A stretch of 64,000 nt of DNA from Metallosphaera sedula DSM 5348 (GTDB lineage: Archaea; Thermoproteota; Thermoprotei_A; Sulfolobales; Sulfolobaceae). The stretch lies in assembly GCF_000016605.1 (NCBI RefSeq), contig NC_009440.1, positions 1,772,001 to 1,836,000 of the forward strand, in the 5' to 3' direction. The notes beneath the pieces were generated by a model, which saw nothing but the letters and a program-made list of their open reading frames with translations, was not told where the DNA came from and searched no databases. The translations under genes and the position numbers were made by a program. Below are positions 6,055 through 60,518 of this stretch, piece after piece. The first letter of the stretch is position 1; every line of letters begins with the position of its first letter.

Positions 6055-7068
6055 TTAGTTACTATTCATGGCTTCCTTATATAACCCTAGGAACTTTTTT
6101 CTTGCAATTTCGTTATATTGTTTCACTAACTCATACCCCTTTCTCCCTATTTCCTCTAAATCCCCACAACTTAATTTGTTCAATATATCACCTAGTTCTT
6201 TAGGATTGTAAGGGTCAAATTTTGGGCTTGCTTTAAAAATAGTATTAAATGATGGAATCTTGCTTGTTATCAAGGGAAGGCCTATAGAATATGCTTCTAA
6301 ACCTACGTAACCCAGTTCCTCGTAAGTTGAGGGTAATATTAGAGCATCGACTTTGTACATTAACTCAAATACTTTTTCTCTTTCTAGAAAACCATGAATT
6401 ATAATGTTTTTATCTCTCCTTATCTTTCCCTTGTCTTCTCCAACTAGATGTAATTCAATGTCTTTCTTCAAGTATTTGAAAGAGTTAAGGATAACCTTTA
6501 AATTCTTTCTCTTCATTGTTAAATCTCTAGATACAAAAAGGAGTTTCAGTTTACTATCGTATTCGTATTTTTTCAACGTCCTATTCTCGATCGGTGGAGG
6601 AATGAAATTTGCACTTTCGTCATTCATGGAAACTATGTATTTTGCCTTTCTAAAAGATATCTTATCCATGATGTAATGTTGAAGAGTGACTGGAAATGCT
6701 CCTAATTTTTCTGGGAATGATAACCCGGCTAATCTAATTAACGCAAGTTTAAAGTAACCGATATAGCCCCATTTTGTTGTTATTAAATTATTTCCCGTTG
6801 AGCCCCAGGGTGGAAGAGTTTCGTGAATTACGTCAAATTCTTTTTCAATCTTTTCCAAGCTTTCTTTGTTTCTTAAGAACGATAAATAAGGTAAAGCTCT
6901 AGATACACCCTTTCTGGTGAATTTTATAACTTTAAATCTCTCACTTTTCCAGTCATCAAAAGAGAGAACTGCGAGGTCCACATAAGATGAGAGAAGTTTT
7001 GCTACTTCTTCAGTATAAGAAGCTATTCCAGAACTCATTTTTTCGTATGCAGATATAAGAACTTTCAT
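6055..7068 (-). CDS. Family 4 glycosyltransferase
   Basis: 337 residues with a GT-B fold. The N-terminus has the glycine-containing acceptor loop (SAYEKMSSGIASYTEEV). The C-terminal donor domain has LLFVSRDLTMKRKNL, VGEDKG and the EX7E motif in EELGYVGLEAYSIGLP. The product would be a cytosolic or membrane-associated retaining transferase in surface glycan assembly. The start ATG 7068 is preceded on the minus strand by an AT-rich stretch. It is convergent with the decayed FkbM gene and is AT-rich like other island genes. The sugar is unknown. Confidence 0.85.
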   Translation of the reverse strand: MKVLISAYEKMSSGIASYTEEVAKLLSSYVDLAVLSFDDWKSERFKVIKFTRKGVSRALPYLSFLRNKESLEKIEKEFDVIHETLPPWGSTGNNLITTKWGYIGYFKLALIRLAGLSFPEKLGAFPVTLQHYIMDKISFRKAKYIVSMNDESANFIPPPIENRTLKKYEYDSKLKLLFVSRDLTMKRKNLKVILNSFKYLKKDIELHLVGEDKGKIRRDKNIIIHGFLEREKVFELMYKVDALILPSTYEELGYVGLEAYSIGLPLITSKIPSFNTIFKASPKFDPYNPKELGDILNKLSCGDLEEIGRKGYELVKQYNEIARKKFLGLYKEAMNSN

Positions 7069-7609: not shown

Positions 7610-7890
7610 TGAGTATAGGGAGTCGCCGTGCGACTGTGGTAAGAGGAGAGGTTACGATAAGCGGTGGAGAGTCGAGATCGTGATATCCGCGATCAAGAGT
7701 ATGTTCAGACGGGATAAAGATGAGTGGCATCCTCCACGACTGTTCTCCAGAAGTTCCGGCTCTACCCCTACATAAGAAGGCCAACTTCCTCAGAGAGATC
7801 CACGCGATTAGCATAGCGTGACATAACCTGCGAATCAAATTATCTAGGCGAAATTTTATAAAGCAAATATATAATCTGTCAAGAGAAAAT
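7610..7890 (+). mobile_element. IS5-like right-end remnant
   Basis: Translation on the plus strand gives LEYRESPCDCGKRRGYDKRW and VEIVISAIKSMF, matching the C-terminal catalytic-glutamate region of the IS5-like transposase at 13656-14558. The downstream tail to 7890 also matches the right end of that element (TTTATAAAATTTCGCCTAG, minus strand). The middle of the transposase is missing. Confidence 0.6.
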
Positions 7891-7948: not shown

Positions 7949-9346
7949 TTAAATGAAGAGATTAAGTATCCTTATAAAGAATCTGAGCTGAGGTGGAATG
8001 AATTTTTGTATTAAGGCCATCTCCTTATTAGTTATGATTCCAAGAAACTTCAATCCTAGAATAATCACAAGTGCCCCAATCACCCAGGAGAAGAGGGAAA
8101 TCGAAGAAAGAGATATCAACAAAATGGAATATATAGTCTTTCTATCGAGTGTTATTATTCCCTGTTTTAGGGAGAAAATTACATAAAGAATACTGGTTAC
8201 TATGGCATTCCCAGCCTGGGCTATCCCCGCACCCAAAATCCCCATTCGCGGGATCAGGAGGAAGGAGACCAGAACCACTTCAATGGCGCTCGCGCTCCCA
8301 ATTACCAGGAAGGGTCTGTAATTCTTGTTGAGTGCAATCAAGAACGTTGAGAGAATTTGAAAGGGCATTGTAACTGTAATGAATAGAACTAGGATCTTCA
8401 ACACCTCGACTCCAGGTGAATACTCAGGGAAAAGCTTGAGAACTAGATATGGGGCAATTGCGTAACTAGATACCCCTAGAAGAAGGGAGAGGAAGGTCAA
8501 GAGTCTAAAGGCACCGGAGGCCATCTCCCTCATCTCGACGCCCTTAGTGTAATAGTAGGTAGAGGAAGGTAGTAGGGCAGAGGTCAAGGACCAAATCAGC
8601 GTATTTGGTACAACAGAAATCAATGCTACCAATTGATAAATACCTAGACTATACGATCCCAGTAAAAATGCTGTAACAACTCTATCCCCTTGTCCGGAAA
8701 TAAAAGACACTATTCCTGACAAATAAATTGGAACCCCTATCTTGGCTATTTCCTTTGCAACCTGAAAATCGAAGTGAAATTTAAACGGAAGATAGTGGTT
8801 ATAGTAGATAACCCTTACCAGGGCACCTAAAGTCCAAATTAGGATCAAGAGTGATATGCTGTGATAAAACACTGCGACCGAGGATATCCCCCATCTCGTT
8901 ACGGTAAAGATAACGTTGCCTAAATTCGTTTCAGAGAACTTTCCCAATCCCGATAAAATCTGATATTGATAAGTGGAAAATAAATATAAAACAAAGTACG
9001 GTATTGACAACCATACGTATGAGGGAAATAGAAACAGAAAAAGGAGAAAAGGTGAAACCAAAAGGGAGTACGAGAGTGAAGTAGAAACTACCTTCCTATG
9101 GTCCTGAGAGGAGGCATATTTATGTGAGATATCCCTCGTGACAAGATTGAACGGTAGTAAAGCAAAGAACGATCCTGTAATAGTCTCTATAAGCTGTATT
9201 ATTGCTACCTTCCCAACAAATGACGGACTAGAAAAATGGGCGACAATGAGAAAGAACAGTAGAGCGGTGATTGAGTTTAGAAGTGTAGTCGCTAGAAACT
9301 TCAATGAACCAGTTAATGGATTCATGATCTTAAACTGATATATCAT
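7949..9346 (-). CDS. Polysaccharide flippase (Wzx/MATE-like)
   Basis: 465 residues with about 12 to 14 hydrophobic spans and the opening layout of polysaccharide transporters (LATTLLNSITALLFFLIVAHFSSP...). Such proteins flip lipid-linked oligosaccharides to the outer membrane face. Start: ATG 9346, or ATG 9325 which gives MNPLTGSLKF. A possible TATA box at about 9370 favours 9346. The gene lies between two IS4/ISH3-like elements in opposite orientation (7249-7609 and 9465-10671). It probably works with the neighbouring glycosyltransferases in exporting the S-layer or exopolysaccharide glycan. Confidence 0.85.
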   Translation of the reverse strand: MIYQFKIMNPLTGSLKFLATTLLNSITALLFFLIVAHFSSPSFVGKVAIIQLIETITGSFFALLPFNLVTRDISHKYASSQDHRKVVSTSLSYSLLVSPFLLFLFLFPSYVWLSIPYFVLYLFSTYQYQILSGLGKFSETNLGNVIFTVTRWGISSVAVFYHSISLLILIWTLGALVRVIYYNHYLPFKFHFDFQVAKEIAKIGVPIYLSGIVSFISGQGDRVVTAFLLGSYSLGIYQLVALISVVPNTLIWSLTSALLPSSTYYYTKGVEMREMASGAFRLLTFLSLLLGVSSYAIAPYLVLKLFPEYSPGVEVLKILVLFITVTMPFQILSTFLIALNKNYRPFLVIGSASAIEVVLVSFLLIPRMGILGAGIAQAGNAIVTSILYVIFSLKQGIITLDRKTIYSILLISLSSISLFSWVIGALVIILGLKFLGIITNKEMALIQKFIPPQLRFFIRILNLFI

Positions 9347-11154: not shown

Positions 11155-13436
11155 ATGCTATCACTTAGGAATTTTTTCTTAGAATTCAGCACTAAAAAGC
11201 AAATATTAATACTTATATCTATGTTTTTAATTGAGAGTACATTTTTATGGTTGGTCTTAGAAGGTAGAATAGTCGTATTTTCTGATACTGGTTTTCCAAT
11301 AAACCCAGTAAATGCATTAATTACCAATTTATATTATTGGAATTGGCCTGCATTCCCTGGTGGAAGTACATATGCCGGATCTTATATTGAAGCTTGGGCA
11401 GTGGCTTCATTTTTTTATCTAATGTTTAAAAATACAGGATTATCACAATATTTTACCTTATTAACGTTCACTTATATCTCGTCTATCGGTATTTATTTCA
11501 TTGTAAGTTTGATTTTAAATAGTGAAAGAAATTATTTAACTTACTTTAGTGCTTTAGTGGCCGGATTATTCTATGTGATTTCTCCTATTTACACCTTTGA
11601 TTTTGTCAGTAATTTAAGCGGATATATATATTCTTATTCTATGTTTCCCCTATTCCTATACTTCGTTCTCAAATATATTAACAGTGATAGATGGGTATCC
11701 TTAACTTTATTAGGATTTATTACGGCAACGATCTTATTTAGTCTTGGTATTTCTTTTGGAACACCTCCAATTCTATGGTGGGAGCTGGTTACATCAATAG
11801 TAATTTTGATAATATTATCAATATTTAAAATAATAAAATTTTATATAAAAAATTTTTAATTGTATTAATAACTTTAATTGTCTCATTTATCCCCTTTGTA
11901 TTTTCCTATTTTAATAACATAAATAATATAGCCTATTCAGTTACACATAGTACCTTTGATGGTAAGTCATTAATTCAGTATATTCTACAAAACACCTTTT
12001 TAATTATGAGTATAAGAAATTATGAATTTTCATACTATACAGCAGAATACTCATTTACATTAATGCAAGGTGATATGATATACCTCCTTCTTCTCCCGTT
12101 TGTATTGATATTAGTAGCTATAATAAGTAGTAGAGATCACAAAATAACGAGACTCTTATCATTCCTTTTTTTGTATGAATTAATTATAGAAATTTTTGCA
12201 TCCGGCCTTATTAATCCTCTTATCATTACAAATATAATAAATAACTCAGTTACCGTCGGTATCGCATATTCTTTTCAAAACGTCTACAGTTTATATCCTC
12301 TATCATTAGTTTATTCCATACTTTTTGGTCTTTCATTTTATTATATTTTATCCAATATTCGCCGAATTAGACAAAGAATGGCAATTATTTTTTTGTTTGC
12401 TCTTGTTTTTATCTCAATAATGACTCCTATCTCAATAAGGCCTCCTATTAATACTTATTCTGCATTTGGATATCCTAATGTAACTTCCTTAACACCAGTT
12501 ATACCACCTTTAGTACAATTGACTGAATTTCTTAACTCTCAGCAGGATTCATTTAATGTTTTAATTGCTCCAGTACAATGGGCAGCCTATGCATATAACA
12601 ATTCCGTTATAATATCCAACCCGGTAATTTTTGGGAGTATGATTTTACCTCCCTCAGAAAAAATTGTTGGCGGAGTAGGTGGATTAGTTGATCCTATTTT
12701 GACTTATTTTCCAAACTCAAAATATAACTTCACTAATTACTTTTTGTTACTTGGTATTAAGTATGTAATAGTGAATACTCATGCCTATCCTGGGTTTGGT
12801 GCAGTTTTAAATCCTCCATATGCTAATGGATTCTTTCAGTCATTAAATCAGTTTAATATTTCTGGAATGGAGAACGTACTTAAGAAAGAAGGTGCGGTAC
12901 TAGTAGCAAATTACTCGTTATTTGAGGTATATCAGCTAGCTAATAACGTAAATATTATATATGCATCTAATGGAATACCCTATAATTTCTCATCTACTAA
13001 CGCTACTAATAACTTATTCTTTCTTTATGCAAATAACACATTAAAGGTTTACAATACTAGTTTGGTATGTAACGAGGTAGAAATAAATAACATAACCACT
13101 CAAAATGTCCATGTAAACTATCAGTATATTAATCCAGATCTATACCTAGTTCATATAAATGCATCAACTAAATTCTATCTAATCTTTGATCAAGGATACT
13201 CAAAGAATTGGTACTTAATATATCCTAATGGTAGTGTTAATAATGACCATTATTTAGCAAACGGATATTCTAATGCCTGGTTAATACCAAGGGGAAGCTA
13301 TAATATTAAAATTGAATATATACCAGAATTTCCGATATTCTATTATGAGAAATTTATTTACTTCTCAATGTTTTTTATAATATCTATATTACTAGTAATA
13401 AAGAAATTTATTAAATATACCAAATTCAATGCTTAA
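11155..13436 (+). pseudogene. Large membrane protein with outer C-terminal domain, frameshifted
   Basis: ORFs 11155-11859 and 12006-13436 belong together. The gap 11860-12005 is open in the second frame (KFLIVLITLIVSFIPFVFSY...), and the switch falls at a run of A and T (about 11841-11857). The joined product would be about 760 residues: ten or more spans in the N-terminal half, a long outer domain rich in N-x-S/T sites, and one C-terminal span with a lysine-rich tail. The plan resembles archaeal YfhO-like or GT-C-type glycosylation proteins, but I see no decisive motif. It is among the most AT-rich genes here, which suggests transfer. The frameshift lies in a homopolymer, so a sequencing error is possible. 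Confidence 0.6.
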
Positions 13437-13621
13437 CTATTAAAGACCATCTTTTAAAATGTTATACAGAACTTTTTCTTGGCTAATTAAAGTTATTAAA
13501 TCTTGGTAATAATTCTATGCTATCTTATTCCTAATCCGTATATTCATTCAGAAAATCCTGGGGTCTGATATAGCGTGTATCATCTGAATTTGCTCATAAT
13601 ATATTATGTATTTGTTTCATA

Positions 13622-34585: not shown

Positions 34586-34801
34586 GTTTTTATATAAACG
34601 TTTACGAACTTATAGATTTTAATGAATCGCCACACGCCGGCGATGGATTAAGTGACTTCGCCTTATATCGAGATTCTCTCTCCTAGTCGATCAAATAACC
34701 TTAGCTATAGCTCTAACCACGGTTTCGTTATGCATAAGAAGGATTCAAGTAGGAGCTAAGCGGTTCTAGTACTAAGATTACCGCTTGATAAAATTTGAAT
34801 G

Positions 34802-34889
<88 letters not shown>

Positions 34890-58494: not shown

Positions 58495-58572
58495 GCGGCC
58501 GTAGTCTAGCCTGGTTAGGACGCTGGCCTTCCAAGCCAGAAGTCCCGGGTTCAAATCCCGGCGGTCGCACCA
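58495..58572 (+). tRNA. tRNA-Gly (TCC), with CCA in the gene
   Basis: Acceptor GCGGCCG/CGGTCGC, D arm GTCT/GGAC, anticodon stem CTGGC/GCCAG with loop CTTCCAA, variable AAGTC, T arm CCGGG-TTCAAAT-CCCGG, discriminator A at 58569, followed by CCA (58570-58572). No intron. Reads GGA codons. No copy of its 3' end is seen downstream in the window. Confidence 0.95.
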
Positions 58573-58701
58573 TTCAGGATCCCATATACAATCTTAATTA
58601 TATTAAGTTTCAATTATATTACCTAGGAGTTTAACAAGGTAAATGCAGCGTTAGACCATATTTGTAAAAAACATAATATCTGCGTGAGTTAGGTGAGCTC
58701 C

Positions 58702-59079
58702 ATGGATAGGCTTAGACTGATGTGGCTCATCATAGTCGTCGGAAATATTGCAGACGTGATCATATCATGGTTTGGTTGGCCCACTGAACTTCGGAATACC
58801 GATATCTATATTTTTGATCATAATCTTGTTTTTAACATGTACATCAATTACATATTTGATTACGGTGGGGATAGCATATCCTTCTTTCAATTGTTGATCC
58901 TTCTTATCTCTCTTAAAATCCTACTAATCGTCATGATATACTGGTTTACTAAATTAGCGGATAAGCTAAGGGTAAGCCACATGAAGTGGGTTATGTTACT
59001 CCCATTCGTGTTGATAACATTAGGTGTAGATGTTTATGATGTCTTGTCCCTGACCAGCCTCGTTTTGGGCTCTTTATAA
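58702..59079 (+). CDS. Small polytopic membrane protein
   Basis: 125 residues from ATG 58702 (GTG 58693 also in frame). Three or four spans: LMWLIIVVGNIADVIISWF, FFQLLILLISLKILLIVMIY and VMLLPFVLITLGVDVYDVL. It ends LGSL; these last codons and the stop are part of the promoter block at 59067-59088. Not recognised. First of a cluster of tiny membrane or secreted proteins. Confidence 0.65.
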   Translation: MDRLRLMWLIIVVGNIADVIISWFGWPTELRNTDIYIFDHNLVFNMYINYIFDYGGDSISFFQLLILLISLKILLIVMIYWFTKLADKLRVSHMKWVMLLPFVLITLGVDVYDVLSLTSLVLGSL

Positions 59080-59080
59080 A
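59067..59080 (+). promoter_or_regulatory. Promoter over a stop codon, copy 1
   Basis: GGGCTCTTTATAAA covers the codons for Gly-Ser-Leu and the TAA of the gene at 58702. TTTATAAA is 26 to 30 bases before ATG 59103, the right distance for a leaderless start. Copies at 59774 and 60239. Confidence 0.65.
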
Positions 59081-59102
59081 ATCTCTTAGTTTCCCCCCTT
59101 CA

Positions 59103-59435
59103 ATGAAGTACAAATCCCCTATATCAATACCAATTCTAACATTATTTTCAATAACAATACTGGTGCCATCTGTTATTACTAATGCCGATACAGATTACCC
59201 TAACACATATGTAGTGGCATTCTATCCTGCCAACCCGCCAAGTAGTTACACAAGTTTTTCAACAATATTTGACGCACTGCCATTCATAAATACTGAGGGC
59301 TATAATTATACTGGATTAGTTATATCTGCGTTTCAATATGATAAAAATAGCATATATTATGGTAAAACTCTAGTAGGTTATTGGCTAACAGATGTAGGAT
59401 ATCAAGAAGGTATAACTACAAACAATTATCAGTAG
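59103..59435 (+). CDS. Small secreted protein
   Basis: 110 residues with a clear N-terminal signal segment (ISIPILTLFSITILVPSVI) after a lysine, followed by an outer part rich in Tyr, Thr and Asn (DTDYPNTYVVAFYPANPPSS). No membrane anchor at the C-terminus. It may be complete or a truncated larger surface protein. Leaderless from the copy 1 promoter. Unknown function. Confidence 0.6.
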   Translation: MKYKSPISIPILTLFSITILVPSVITNADTDYPNTYVVAFYPANPPSSYTSFSTIFDALPFINTEGYNYTGLVISAFQYDKNSIYYGKTLVGYWLTDVGYQEGITTNNYQ

Positions 59436-59546
59436 GTCAAACATGCCAATATTCAGGACTTAAATCCATTTTTTAATTTATAAAGAATATTGCCAAAACG
59501 TTTTTTATTTCTTTAAGGGCAATCCTTTTTTAGGTGGCATAAAACA

Positions 59547-59786
59547 GTGACTACAACTACGATGTATCCAATAAATGGTACGCCTTTCGGGCCTGTGTAC
59601 TTGCCGCCTGGGACGTTTATTCCGGCAAATAGTTCTTCAACAGTACTATTATCCCCACCCCCACCACCATGGTATATAGCCTTTTTGCCAGAAATCGTAA
59701 TAGGAATAGTCGTAATAGGTGCCATATCCTTCTTAGTATTTAGAGGTAAGTTTAAGTTCTTAAGAAAGGCAAGGGGCTCTTTATAA
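59547..59786 (+). CDS. Small protein with C-terminal membrane anchor, type A
   Basis: 79 residues, GTG start. The first 45 are Thr/Pro-rich (GTPFGPVYLPPGTFIP, SPPPPPW), then one span (IVIGIVVIGAISFLVF) and a strongly basic tail (RGKFKFLRKARGSL). It resembles the protein at 59964 in layout. This could be an outward-facing N-terminal part with a cytosolic basic tail. The end RGSL and stop are within promoter copy 2. Confidence 0.55.
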   Translation: MTTTTMYPINGTPFGPVYLPPGTFIPANSSSTVLLSPPPPPWYIAFLPEIVIGIVVIGAISFLVFRGKFKFLRKARGSL

Positions 59787-59794
59787 ATTTCCCC
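59774..59794 (+). promoter_or_regulatory. Promoter over a stop codon, copy 2
   Basis: GGGCTCTTTATAAATTTCCCC. It codes for Gly-Ser-Leu-stop of the gene at 59547 and then continues with the same TTTCCCC tail as copy 3. GTG codons at 59807 and 59810 lie at the leaderless distance. Confidence 0.65.
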
Positions 59795-59823
59795 TTTTCC
59801 CACCTAGTGGTGACAACAATCAG

Positions 59824-59925
59824 ATGCACGTATCGCTTGGGAATGCATGGCCTAATAATGGTGAATACGACTATTCCTATAACTTCTATCTGCCATCATC
59901 CGGTCTATCATTCACCGCACTATAA
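59824..59925 (+). CDS. Possible 33-residue ORF or fragment
   Basis: ATG 59824 reads MHVSLGNAWPNNGEY and ends LPSSGLSFTAL before TAA, a composition like the outer part of secreted proteins. A second frame from GTG 59807 (36 codons) overlaps it and fits the promoter distance better. One of these, or neither, may be real; the first looks like a relic of a surface protein. Confidence 0.25.
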   Translation: MHVSLGNAWPNNGEYDYSYNFYLPSSGLSFTAL

Positions 59926-59963
59926 GGAATAACTTTTTCCCTTTTCTTTTTCCTATTCTCTTG

Positions 59964-60251
59964 ATGACTGTATCTAACACGAGTTATTATAACATCACAA
60001 AAGTACCATTCCAACCTGGAAATATTAATGTAACAATAGGGCCAGACACTACCACGTTCATTGGCCCACCGGAACCCCTATGGGTTCAAACGATGCACAC
60101 GATTATTTTCTTCGTTATTTTCTTCTTACCAGAAATAACTCTCGCATTAGCTATACTGAGTTTGATATTTACTTTCCGTAAATCACCAAAAGTGAAGGCA
60201 ATAACAAGGTATTTCCCTAAGTTCAGGAGCAAGTCAAAGGGCTCTTTATAA
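59964..60251 (+). CDS. Small protein with C-terminal membrane anchor, type B
   Basis: 95 residues from ATG 59964. The outer part has N-x-S/T sites and ends IGPPEPLW. One long or two short spans (TIIFFVIFFLPEITLALAIL) follow, then a basic tail (KAITRYFPKFRSKSKGSL). Same plan as the protein at 59547, sharing PP..PW, LPEI and the final GSL. Probably paralogues. Function unknown. Confidence 0.55.
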   Translation: MTVSNTSYYNITKVPFQPGNINVTIGPDTTTFIGPPEPLWVQTMHTIIFFVIFFLPEITLALAILSLIFTFRKSPKVKAITRYFPKFRSKSKGSL

Positions 60252-60259
60252 ATTTCCCC
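60239..60259 (+). promoter_or_regulatory. Promoter over a stop codon, copy 3, with no gene after it
   Basis: GGGCTCTTTATAAATTTCCCC, nearly the same as copy 2. ATG 60272 lies at leaderless distance but opens only 11 codons, and the convergent gene at 60291 begins right after. This copy probably lost its gene or makes a short RNA. Confidence 0.55.
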
Positions 60260-60290
60260 TTTCCCAGTCCAATGAAAAGAGAGTTGACAA

Positions 60291-60518
60291 TTACCTTACT
60301 CTTCTAATGGTGATCTCGGCGTGATCCCCTACTACATCCCCCTTAAATAGATACCTAGGAGCATTCTTGAGAAGTTGATGTGTGCAAAGTATCCTGTCCT
60401 GATCAGCGACTAGCGAAAGTACATCTCCTGGTTTCATTGCAACTAATACCTTGGATATTTCAACCATGAATTCGTCGCATGATTTTCCCCTTAAATCTAA
60501 CGAGAACGTCTGTGGCAT
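60291..60518 (-). CDS. TusA/SirA-like sulfur-carrier protein
   Basis: 75 residues. [20 protein letters not shown] and [14 protein letters not shown] fit the TusA fold; Cys14 would carry the persulfide. The usual Cys-Pro is Cys-Asp here. TusA proteins pass sulfur in tRNA thiolation or, in Sulfolobales, in dissimilatory sulfur oxidation with DsrE and Hdr-like complexes, but no such genes are adjacent. Confidence 0.75.

What the first reader, a model, noticed from the sequence alone, without database searches (positions are those of the whole stretch)
58702..60272. A promoter reused three times, written over the stop codons of tiny membrane-protein genes
GGGCTCTTTATAAA occurs at 59067, 59774 and 60239. 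Each time it encodes Gly-Ser-Leu-stop at the end of one small gene and provides a TATA box for the next start 22 to 30 bases on. As a result three otherwise different proteins all end in GSL. The C-terminal residues therefore seem set by promoter need, not protein function. The last copy points at only 11 codons, as if a gene were lost or a short RNA is made. This is a modular string of promoter-gene cassettes that could gain or lose members by recombination at the 14-21 bp blocks.
Basis: seen in the sequence. Interest (0 to 1): 0.68.

Follow-up and report, generated by a model that had tools for sequence, protein, structure and literature searches.

The report
Fusellovirus promoters in a relic provirus
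The thrice-repeated block is the promoter that spindle-shaped archaeal viruses place before their killer-toxin and tail genes, left here in a broken provirus; because it lies on the ends of the upstream genes, it also dictates the last amino acids of their proteins.

Summary
In detail: GGGCTCTTTATAAA occurs exactly three times in the 2.19 Mb genome, all here, and each copy encodes GSL-stop. The locus is a relic fusellovirus (SSV) provirus beside tRNA-Gly: the end of the B129 zinc-finger gene, a B111 homologue, a broken T3 killer-toxin gene, two small membrane-protein genes, and the first codons of (probably) the VP4 tail gene, cut off at a host gene. Block 1 is the orthologue of the mapped T3 promoter of SSV1; block 3 is probably that of T4. 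In seven SSV genomes the box precedes the same three genes every time (toxin, VP4, A82: 21/21) and none of the other 211 annotated genes. Corrections: the '11-codon gene' is a truncated VP4 start running into a host gene; the gene after block 2 starts at 59824 and is the toxin's C-terminal piece; cassettes did move, but only one of two junctions lies at a block. New member of a known kind; I found no description of the shared three-gene box.

The parts
58495..58572 (+). tRNA-Gly (tcc), the integration site; sister genomes carry SSV integrase N-fragments at the same tRNA gene
   Evidence: ARAGORN; int(N) relics at this tRNA in G003 and G004
58627..58692 (+). last 21 codons and stop of the SSV B129 zinc-finger gene (remnant)
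   Evidence: tblastn E about 1e-5 to 1e-6 with nine fuselloviruses
58702..59079 (+). B111/C113-family membrane protein (ORF open from 58693), ends GSL
   Evidence: phrog_8567 E 1.7e-21; 41 SSV records
59067..59080 (+). block 1: orthologue of the SSV1 T3 promoter; predicted start of transcription 59102-59103
   Evidence: same junction and box as mapped T3
59103..59435 (+). N-terminal 110 aa (with signal peptide) of the T3 killer-toxin homologue, truncated
   Evidence: phrog_15623 E 3.5e-6; SSV9 B310 32% over about 90 aa
59547..59786 (+). 79-aa one-helix membrane protein (C124-like), ends GSL; cassette with upstream DNA from about 59411 inserted in the toxin gene
   Evidence: 91-aa homologues in G028 56-64% identical; SSV1 C124 C-terminus
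59774..59787 (+). block 2: extra copy that came with the 79-aa cassette
   Evidence: the same end (KAKGSL plus box) on G028 homologues
59824..59925 (+). 33-aa ORF: C-terminal piece of the toxin family, Shine-Dalgarno GGTGA at 59809-59813
   Evidence: 57% identical to a 33-aa ORF in G028; matches SSV7 A298 residues 270-291
59964..60251 (+). 95-aa membrane protein (B74/C67-like), ends GSL
   Evidence: 45% identical to G028 80-aa protein; SSV7 C67 E 1e-4 in a small comparison
60239..60252 (+). block 3: probable T4 promoter, in front of a deleted VP4 gene
   Evidence: box precedes VP4 in 7 of 7 alphafuselloviruses
60272..60290 (+). first codons of the lost gene (MKRELT..), probably VP4; then deletion junction
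   Evidence: resembles MKNELVISILL, start of the G028 VP4-like protein
60291..60518 (-). host TusA-like gene; the rest of the 11-codon ORF is its antisense
   Evidence: Pfam TusA E 7e-5, below cut-off; its C-terminus is conserved in sister genomes

Best explanation
The block is a fusellovirus core promoter: a TATA box (TTTATAAA) preceded by a G/C-rich GGCYC at the TFB-recognition position, used by these viruses at the T3 (killer toxin), T4 (VP4 tail) and T9 (A82) promoters. Genes are packed so tightly that the box lies on or next to the last codons and stop of the upstream gene, and transcription starts at or beside the next start codon. Selection keeps the DNA box, and the upstream protein takes whatever ending the box gives in its frame; here this is GSL-stop, because TTA TAA is part of the TATA box. 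The window holds a relic of such a virus beside tRNA-Gly: block 1 is T3, block 3 is probably T4 with VP4 deleted, and block 2 came with a small membrane-protein cassette that replaced the middle of the toxin gene. Shown: homology, gene order, box distribution, frame differences. Inferred: that these copies are still transcribed in this host, and the exact start points.
For: Mapped starts of SSV1 T3, T4 and T9 lie 27-30 bases after the same box. In seven alphafuselloviruses (232 annotated genes) the box with at most 1 mismatch precedes toxin, VP4 and A82 genes 21 of 21 times and 0 of 211 other genes. Upstream stops fall at many offsets relative to the box, with endings GSL, GLL, SPL, SSL, or a stop before it; in G028 the identical 14 bases are in another frame and read on as GLFINSSPFFLFQ, although the B111 homologue is 74% identical. 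Gene order B129-B111-toxin-small protein-VP4 as in SSVs. In the own genome, box plus start codon occurs only here.
Against: No transcript data for the window. The window copies lack the GTC that follows most SSV boxes. Block 3 is 19 bases from its ATG, shorter than the usual 21-25. The consensus used in the gene census was learned from some of the same genomes. The VP4 identity of the last ORF rests on about six codons.
Confidence: 0.88

Rival explanations
1. The shared GSL C-terminus is a functional peptide signal (for example for membrane insertion or assembly), and the DNA identity merely follows from it.
For: All three upstream proteins are predicted membrane proteins with the same last three residues; G028 paralogues also end KGSL.
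Against: The ending is not kept in B111 homologues: GLL in G004 and G017, SPL in G030, SSL in G024, none of these in SSVs, and another frame in G028, while the DNA box is kept.
Confidence: 0.04
2. The blocks are mainly recombination sites that let cassettes be gained and lost; promoter activity is secondary.
For: Cassette order differs between window and G028; the 79-aa cassette occurs at several places in G028 with the block at its end; its right junction in the window lies just after the block.
Against: The left junction (about 59411) is not at a block. In SSVs the box stays in front of the same three genes in every genome, and it coincides with mapped promoters.
Confidence: 0.08
3. The remaining genes are kept by the host as protection against SSV killer toxins or superinfection, with the box still driving them (an addition to, not a replacement of, the main explanation).
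For: B111 and both membrane-protein ORFs are open; the same tRNA-Gly site in G004 keeps fragments of the same module; small elements in G028 keep only the 79-aa-type gene beside integrase fragments.
Against: No test of selection was made; toxin and VP4 are broken; the G004 copy is full of insertion sequences; the published work found no separate immunity gene (PMC8628083).
Confidence: 0.2

Closest known systems
SSV1 T3, T4 and T9 promoters (mapped; record X07234)
   Same: Box sequence, place in the gene order (T3 after B129/B111 and before the toxin; T4 before VP4), leaderless spacing, overlap with the upstream gene end.
   Different: The window uses the register in which the TATA box itself supplies the stop (GSL); it lacks GTC after the box; it has an extra copy (block 2) and a provirus context in another host genus.
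SSV T3 killer-toxin locus (SSV9 B310, SSV1 A291; PMC8628083)
   Same: Position between B111 and VP4, signal peptide, followed by small membrane proteins.
   Different: Here the toxin is broken into an N-part and a C-part with a foreign cassette between them.
SIRV promoters with GTC after the TATA box (Kessler et al. 2004, as cited in PMC5569661)
   Same: Virus-wide shared element beside the TATA box; most SSV boxes are also followed by GTC or GCC.
   Different: The fusellovirus box has a conserved G/C-rich element before the TATA box; window copies lack GTC.

Membership tests
Fusellovirus T3/T4/T9-type promoter | box RGSYCTTTWTAAA | tested here: met
   all three copies match without mismatch
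Fusellovirus T3/T4/T9-type promoter | lies in front of toxin, VP4 or A82 orthologue | tested here: met
   block 1 toxin N-part; block 3 probably VP4; block 2 is an extra copy in front of the toxin C-part
Fusellovirus T3/T4/T9-type promoter | start codon 21-25 bases after the box | tested here: inconclusive
   22 for block 1; 36 (with a Shine-Dalgarno) for block 2; 19 for block 3
Fusellovirus T3/T4/T9-type promoter | mapped transcription start 27-30 bases after the first T of the TATA hexamer | not testable with these tools
   mapped in SSV1; no RNA data for this host
Fusellovirus provirus (relic) | several SSV genes in SSV order beside a tRNA gene | tested here: met
   B129 end, B111, toxin parts, small membrane proteins
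Fusellovirus provirus (relic) | split integrase and att repeats | tested here: not met
   no integrase and no second tRNA end in the window; int(N) relics at the same tRNA in G003 and G004. So a deleted relic, not an intact provirus.
SSV killer toxin (B310/A291) | full-length secreted protein of about 300 aa | tested here: not met
   only a 110-aa N-part and a separate 33-aa C-part

The most novel reading that the evidence does not exclude
The GGCYC element before the TATA box, with C where strong TFB sites have A at -3, marks a fusellovirus-specific promoter class that controls exactly three genes (killer toxin, tail protein, A82) through a dedicated factor, such as the essential zinc-finger protein B129 or an alternative TFB, and its overlap with coding ends has shaped the C-termini of the proteins upstream.
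Probability: 0.3. Interest if true: 0.6.

Novelty: new member of a known kind. Interest (0 to 1): 0.42.

Why it matters
It is a clear case, shown by frame differences between relatives, in which the last residues of a protein are dictated by the next gene's promoter. It also shows that seven alphafuselloviruses each carry one shared promoter box at exactly three genes, including the killer toxin and the tail protein, which gives a small regulon to test in a model archaeal virus.

Tried and rejected
The loose pattern RGVYCTTTATAAA is no more common in 31 genomes than its reversed control; only the strict form with a start codon is specific in the own genome. Exact-pattern scans of genome contigs and viral contigs gave almost only chance hits; of the loci fetched, three viral ones encode module proteins. 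The search for related loci found no relatives of single proteins. The start at 59807/59810 was rejected in favour of 59824. No second tRNA end (attR) was found. The string CCCTTTATAAA occurs in three open papers, none relevant. The two 1988 papers on SSV1 promoters and terminators are not held, so the shared box may have been noted there. A host-promoter comparison in the window gave only seven usable sites, too few for a firm contrast of the TFB site.

Full report
WHAT IS THERE. The three 14-base copies are real and unique to this locus in the genome. Each ends an ORF with GGC TCT TTA TAA.

WHAT THE LOCUS IS. The first ORF belongs to phrog_8567 (E 1.7e-21) and matches B111/C113 proteins in 41 SSV records. 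The stretch before it (58627-58692) encodes the end of the SSV B129 zinc-finger protein. The next ORF matches the N-terminal part of the protein of the SSV T3 transcript (phrog_15623; SSV9 B310), which DeWerff et al. showed to be a secreted killer toxin acting on other Sulfolobus strains (PMC8628083). The 33-aa ORF at 59824 is a C-terminal piece of that family. The 79-aa and 95-aa ORFs resemble the small membrane proteins that follow the toxin in SSVs (C124 and B74/C67), and each other. The ORF after block 3 begins MKREL, like the VP4-like protein of a related provirus in G028 (MKNELVISILL), and after 19 bases runs antisense into the host TusA-like gene. The order B129-B111-toxin-small protein-VP4 is that of SSVs. 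In sister genomes G003 and G004 an SSV integrase N-fragment lies at the same tRNA-Gly. The window thus holds about 1.7 kb of a deleted fusellovirus provirus.

WHAT THE BLOCK IS. The SSV1 record carries mapped starts: T3 at 7851, one base before A-291; T4 at 9173, before C-792 (VP4); T9 at 13551, before A-82. All three have the same box: GGCTCTTTTTAAA, AGCCCTTTTTAAA and GGCCCTTTATAAA; T1/T2, T5 and T6 do not. I took the annotated gene starts of SSV1, 2, 4, 7, 8, 9 and SSV-Lassen (232 genes; a few genes that cross record ends or nest in others were left out; SSV9 toxin start as re-annotated in PMC8628083) and looked for the box upstream. With at most one mismatch it precedes the toxin, VP4 and A82 genes in all seven (21 of 21) and none of the other 211. 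For 129 random positions in four of these genomes about 0.6 would be expected. Genes were not chosen by motif, though the consensus was partly learned from these genomes. In the two betafuselloviruses the box is at A82 and at the VP4-adaptor gene, plus VP1 (SSV6) or C806 (ASV1).

PROMOTER OR PROTEIN? Across viruses and proviruses the upstream gene stops at offsets from -10 to -1, or at +9, relative to the box. In the +9 register the box itself supplies the stop, and the endings are GSL (window, G028), GLL (G004, G017), SPL (G030) or SSL (G024). In G028 the B111 homologue (74% identical) has the identical 14 bases in another frame and reads on as GLFINSSPFFLFQ. That all three window copies share a frame needs no special cause, since TATAAA offers a stop in only one frame.

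CASSETTES. G028 has B111, box, toxin (283 aa), 33 aa, 80 aa, box, 91 aa, box, a 201-aa gene similar to an SSV core gene, then a 1198-aa VP4-like gene. The window has the 79-aa cassette inside the toxin gene. Its left edge (about 59411) matches sequence just after the integrase stop in small G028 elements; its right edge lies just after block 2. A cassette did move with its own box, and one of its two junctions coincides with a block.

MECHANISM AND LIMITS. Host TBP and TFB would bind the box and start transcription 27-30 bases downstream, as mapped in SSV1. The T-rich tract between box and start resembles the SSV1 terminator motif TTTTTYT (PMC9608457), so it may also end the upstream transcript; this is inference. 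Strong TFB sites have G at -6 and A at -3 (PMC11065993); this box has C at -3 in all 36 distinct SSV copies collected, which suggests a weak or special site, but those copies were collected by motif. The review places T3, T4 and T9 in different temporal classes (PMC9608457), which speaks against simple co-regulation. No expression data exist here for the window.

NOVELTY. The promoters and the toxin locus are known; the relic is a new member. I did not find the family-wide three-gene box or its effect on C-termini described, but the key 1988 papers could not be read.

Noticed in passing
G028: L056 1600-3880, L057 2190-4500, L058 3900-4700: Small integrated elements of about 2 kb at different tRNA genes carry SSV-type integrase fragments and, as sole other gene, the 79/91-aa-type membrane protein; in L056 and L057 the box follows it with no ORF behind. 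They may be satellite-like or deletion derivatives.
   Followed up: partly
window 59824-59925; L055 about 6384-6483: The toxin family's C-terminal piece is a separate 33-aa ORF with its own Shine-Dalgarno in both the window and G028, as if the toxin gene were split or frameshifted in this lineage.
   Followed up: partly
window 60291-60518; L059, L060, L061: The TusA-like gene next to the relic is inverted in this genome and G004 relative to G003 and G005, where it follows the tRNA-Gly in the same direction.
   Followed up: partly
L055 4286-4332 and 11543-11589: 47-base direct repeats bound a 7.3 kb fusellovirus provirus in G028; an integrase N-fragment lies at its right end.
   Followed up: no
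G000:C1:2184993-2185005 (-): A further GGCCCTTTATAAA in the own genome, outside the window, not in front of a close ATG; may be another provirus remnant.
   Followed up: no
L076 (SSV9) 11914-11951: The box sits at the right distance before the re-annotated toxin start (B310), not before the annotated B252 start, which agrees with the published correction.
   Followed up: yes
window 34801-34889 (-): ARAGORN reports a tRNA-like structure with an odd four-base anticodon (ctaa).
   Followed up: no
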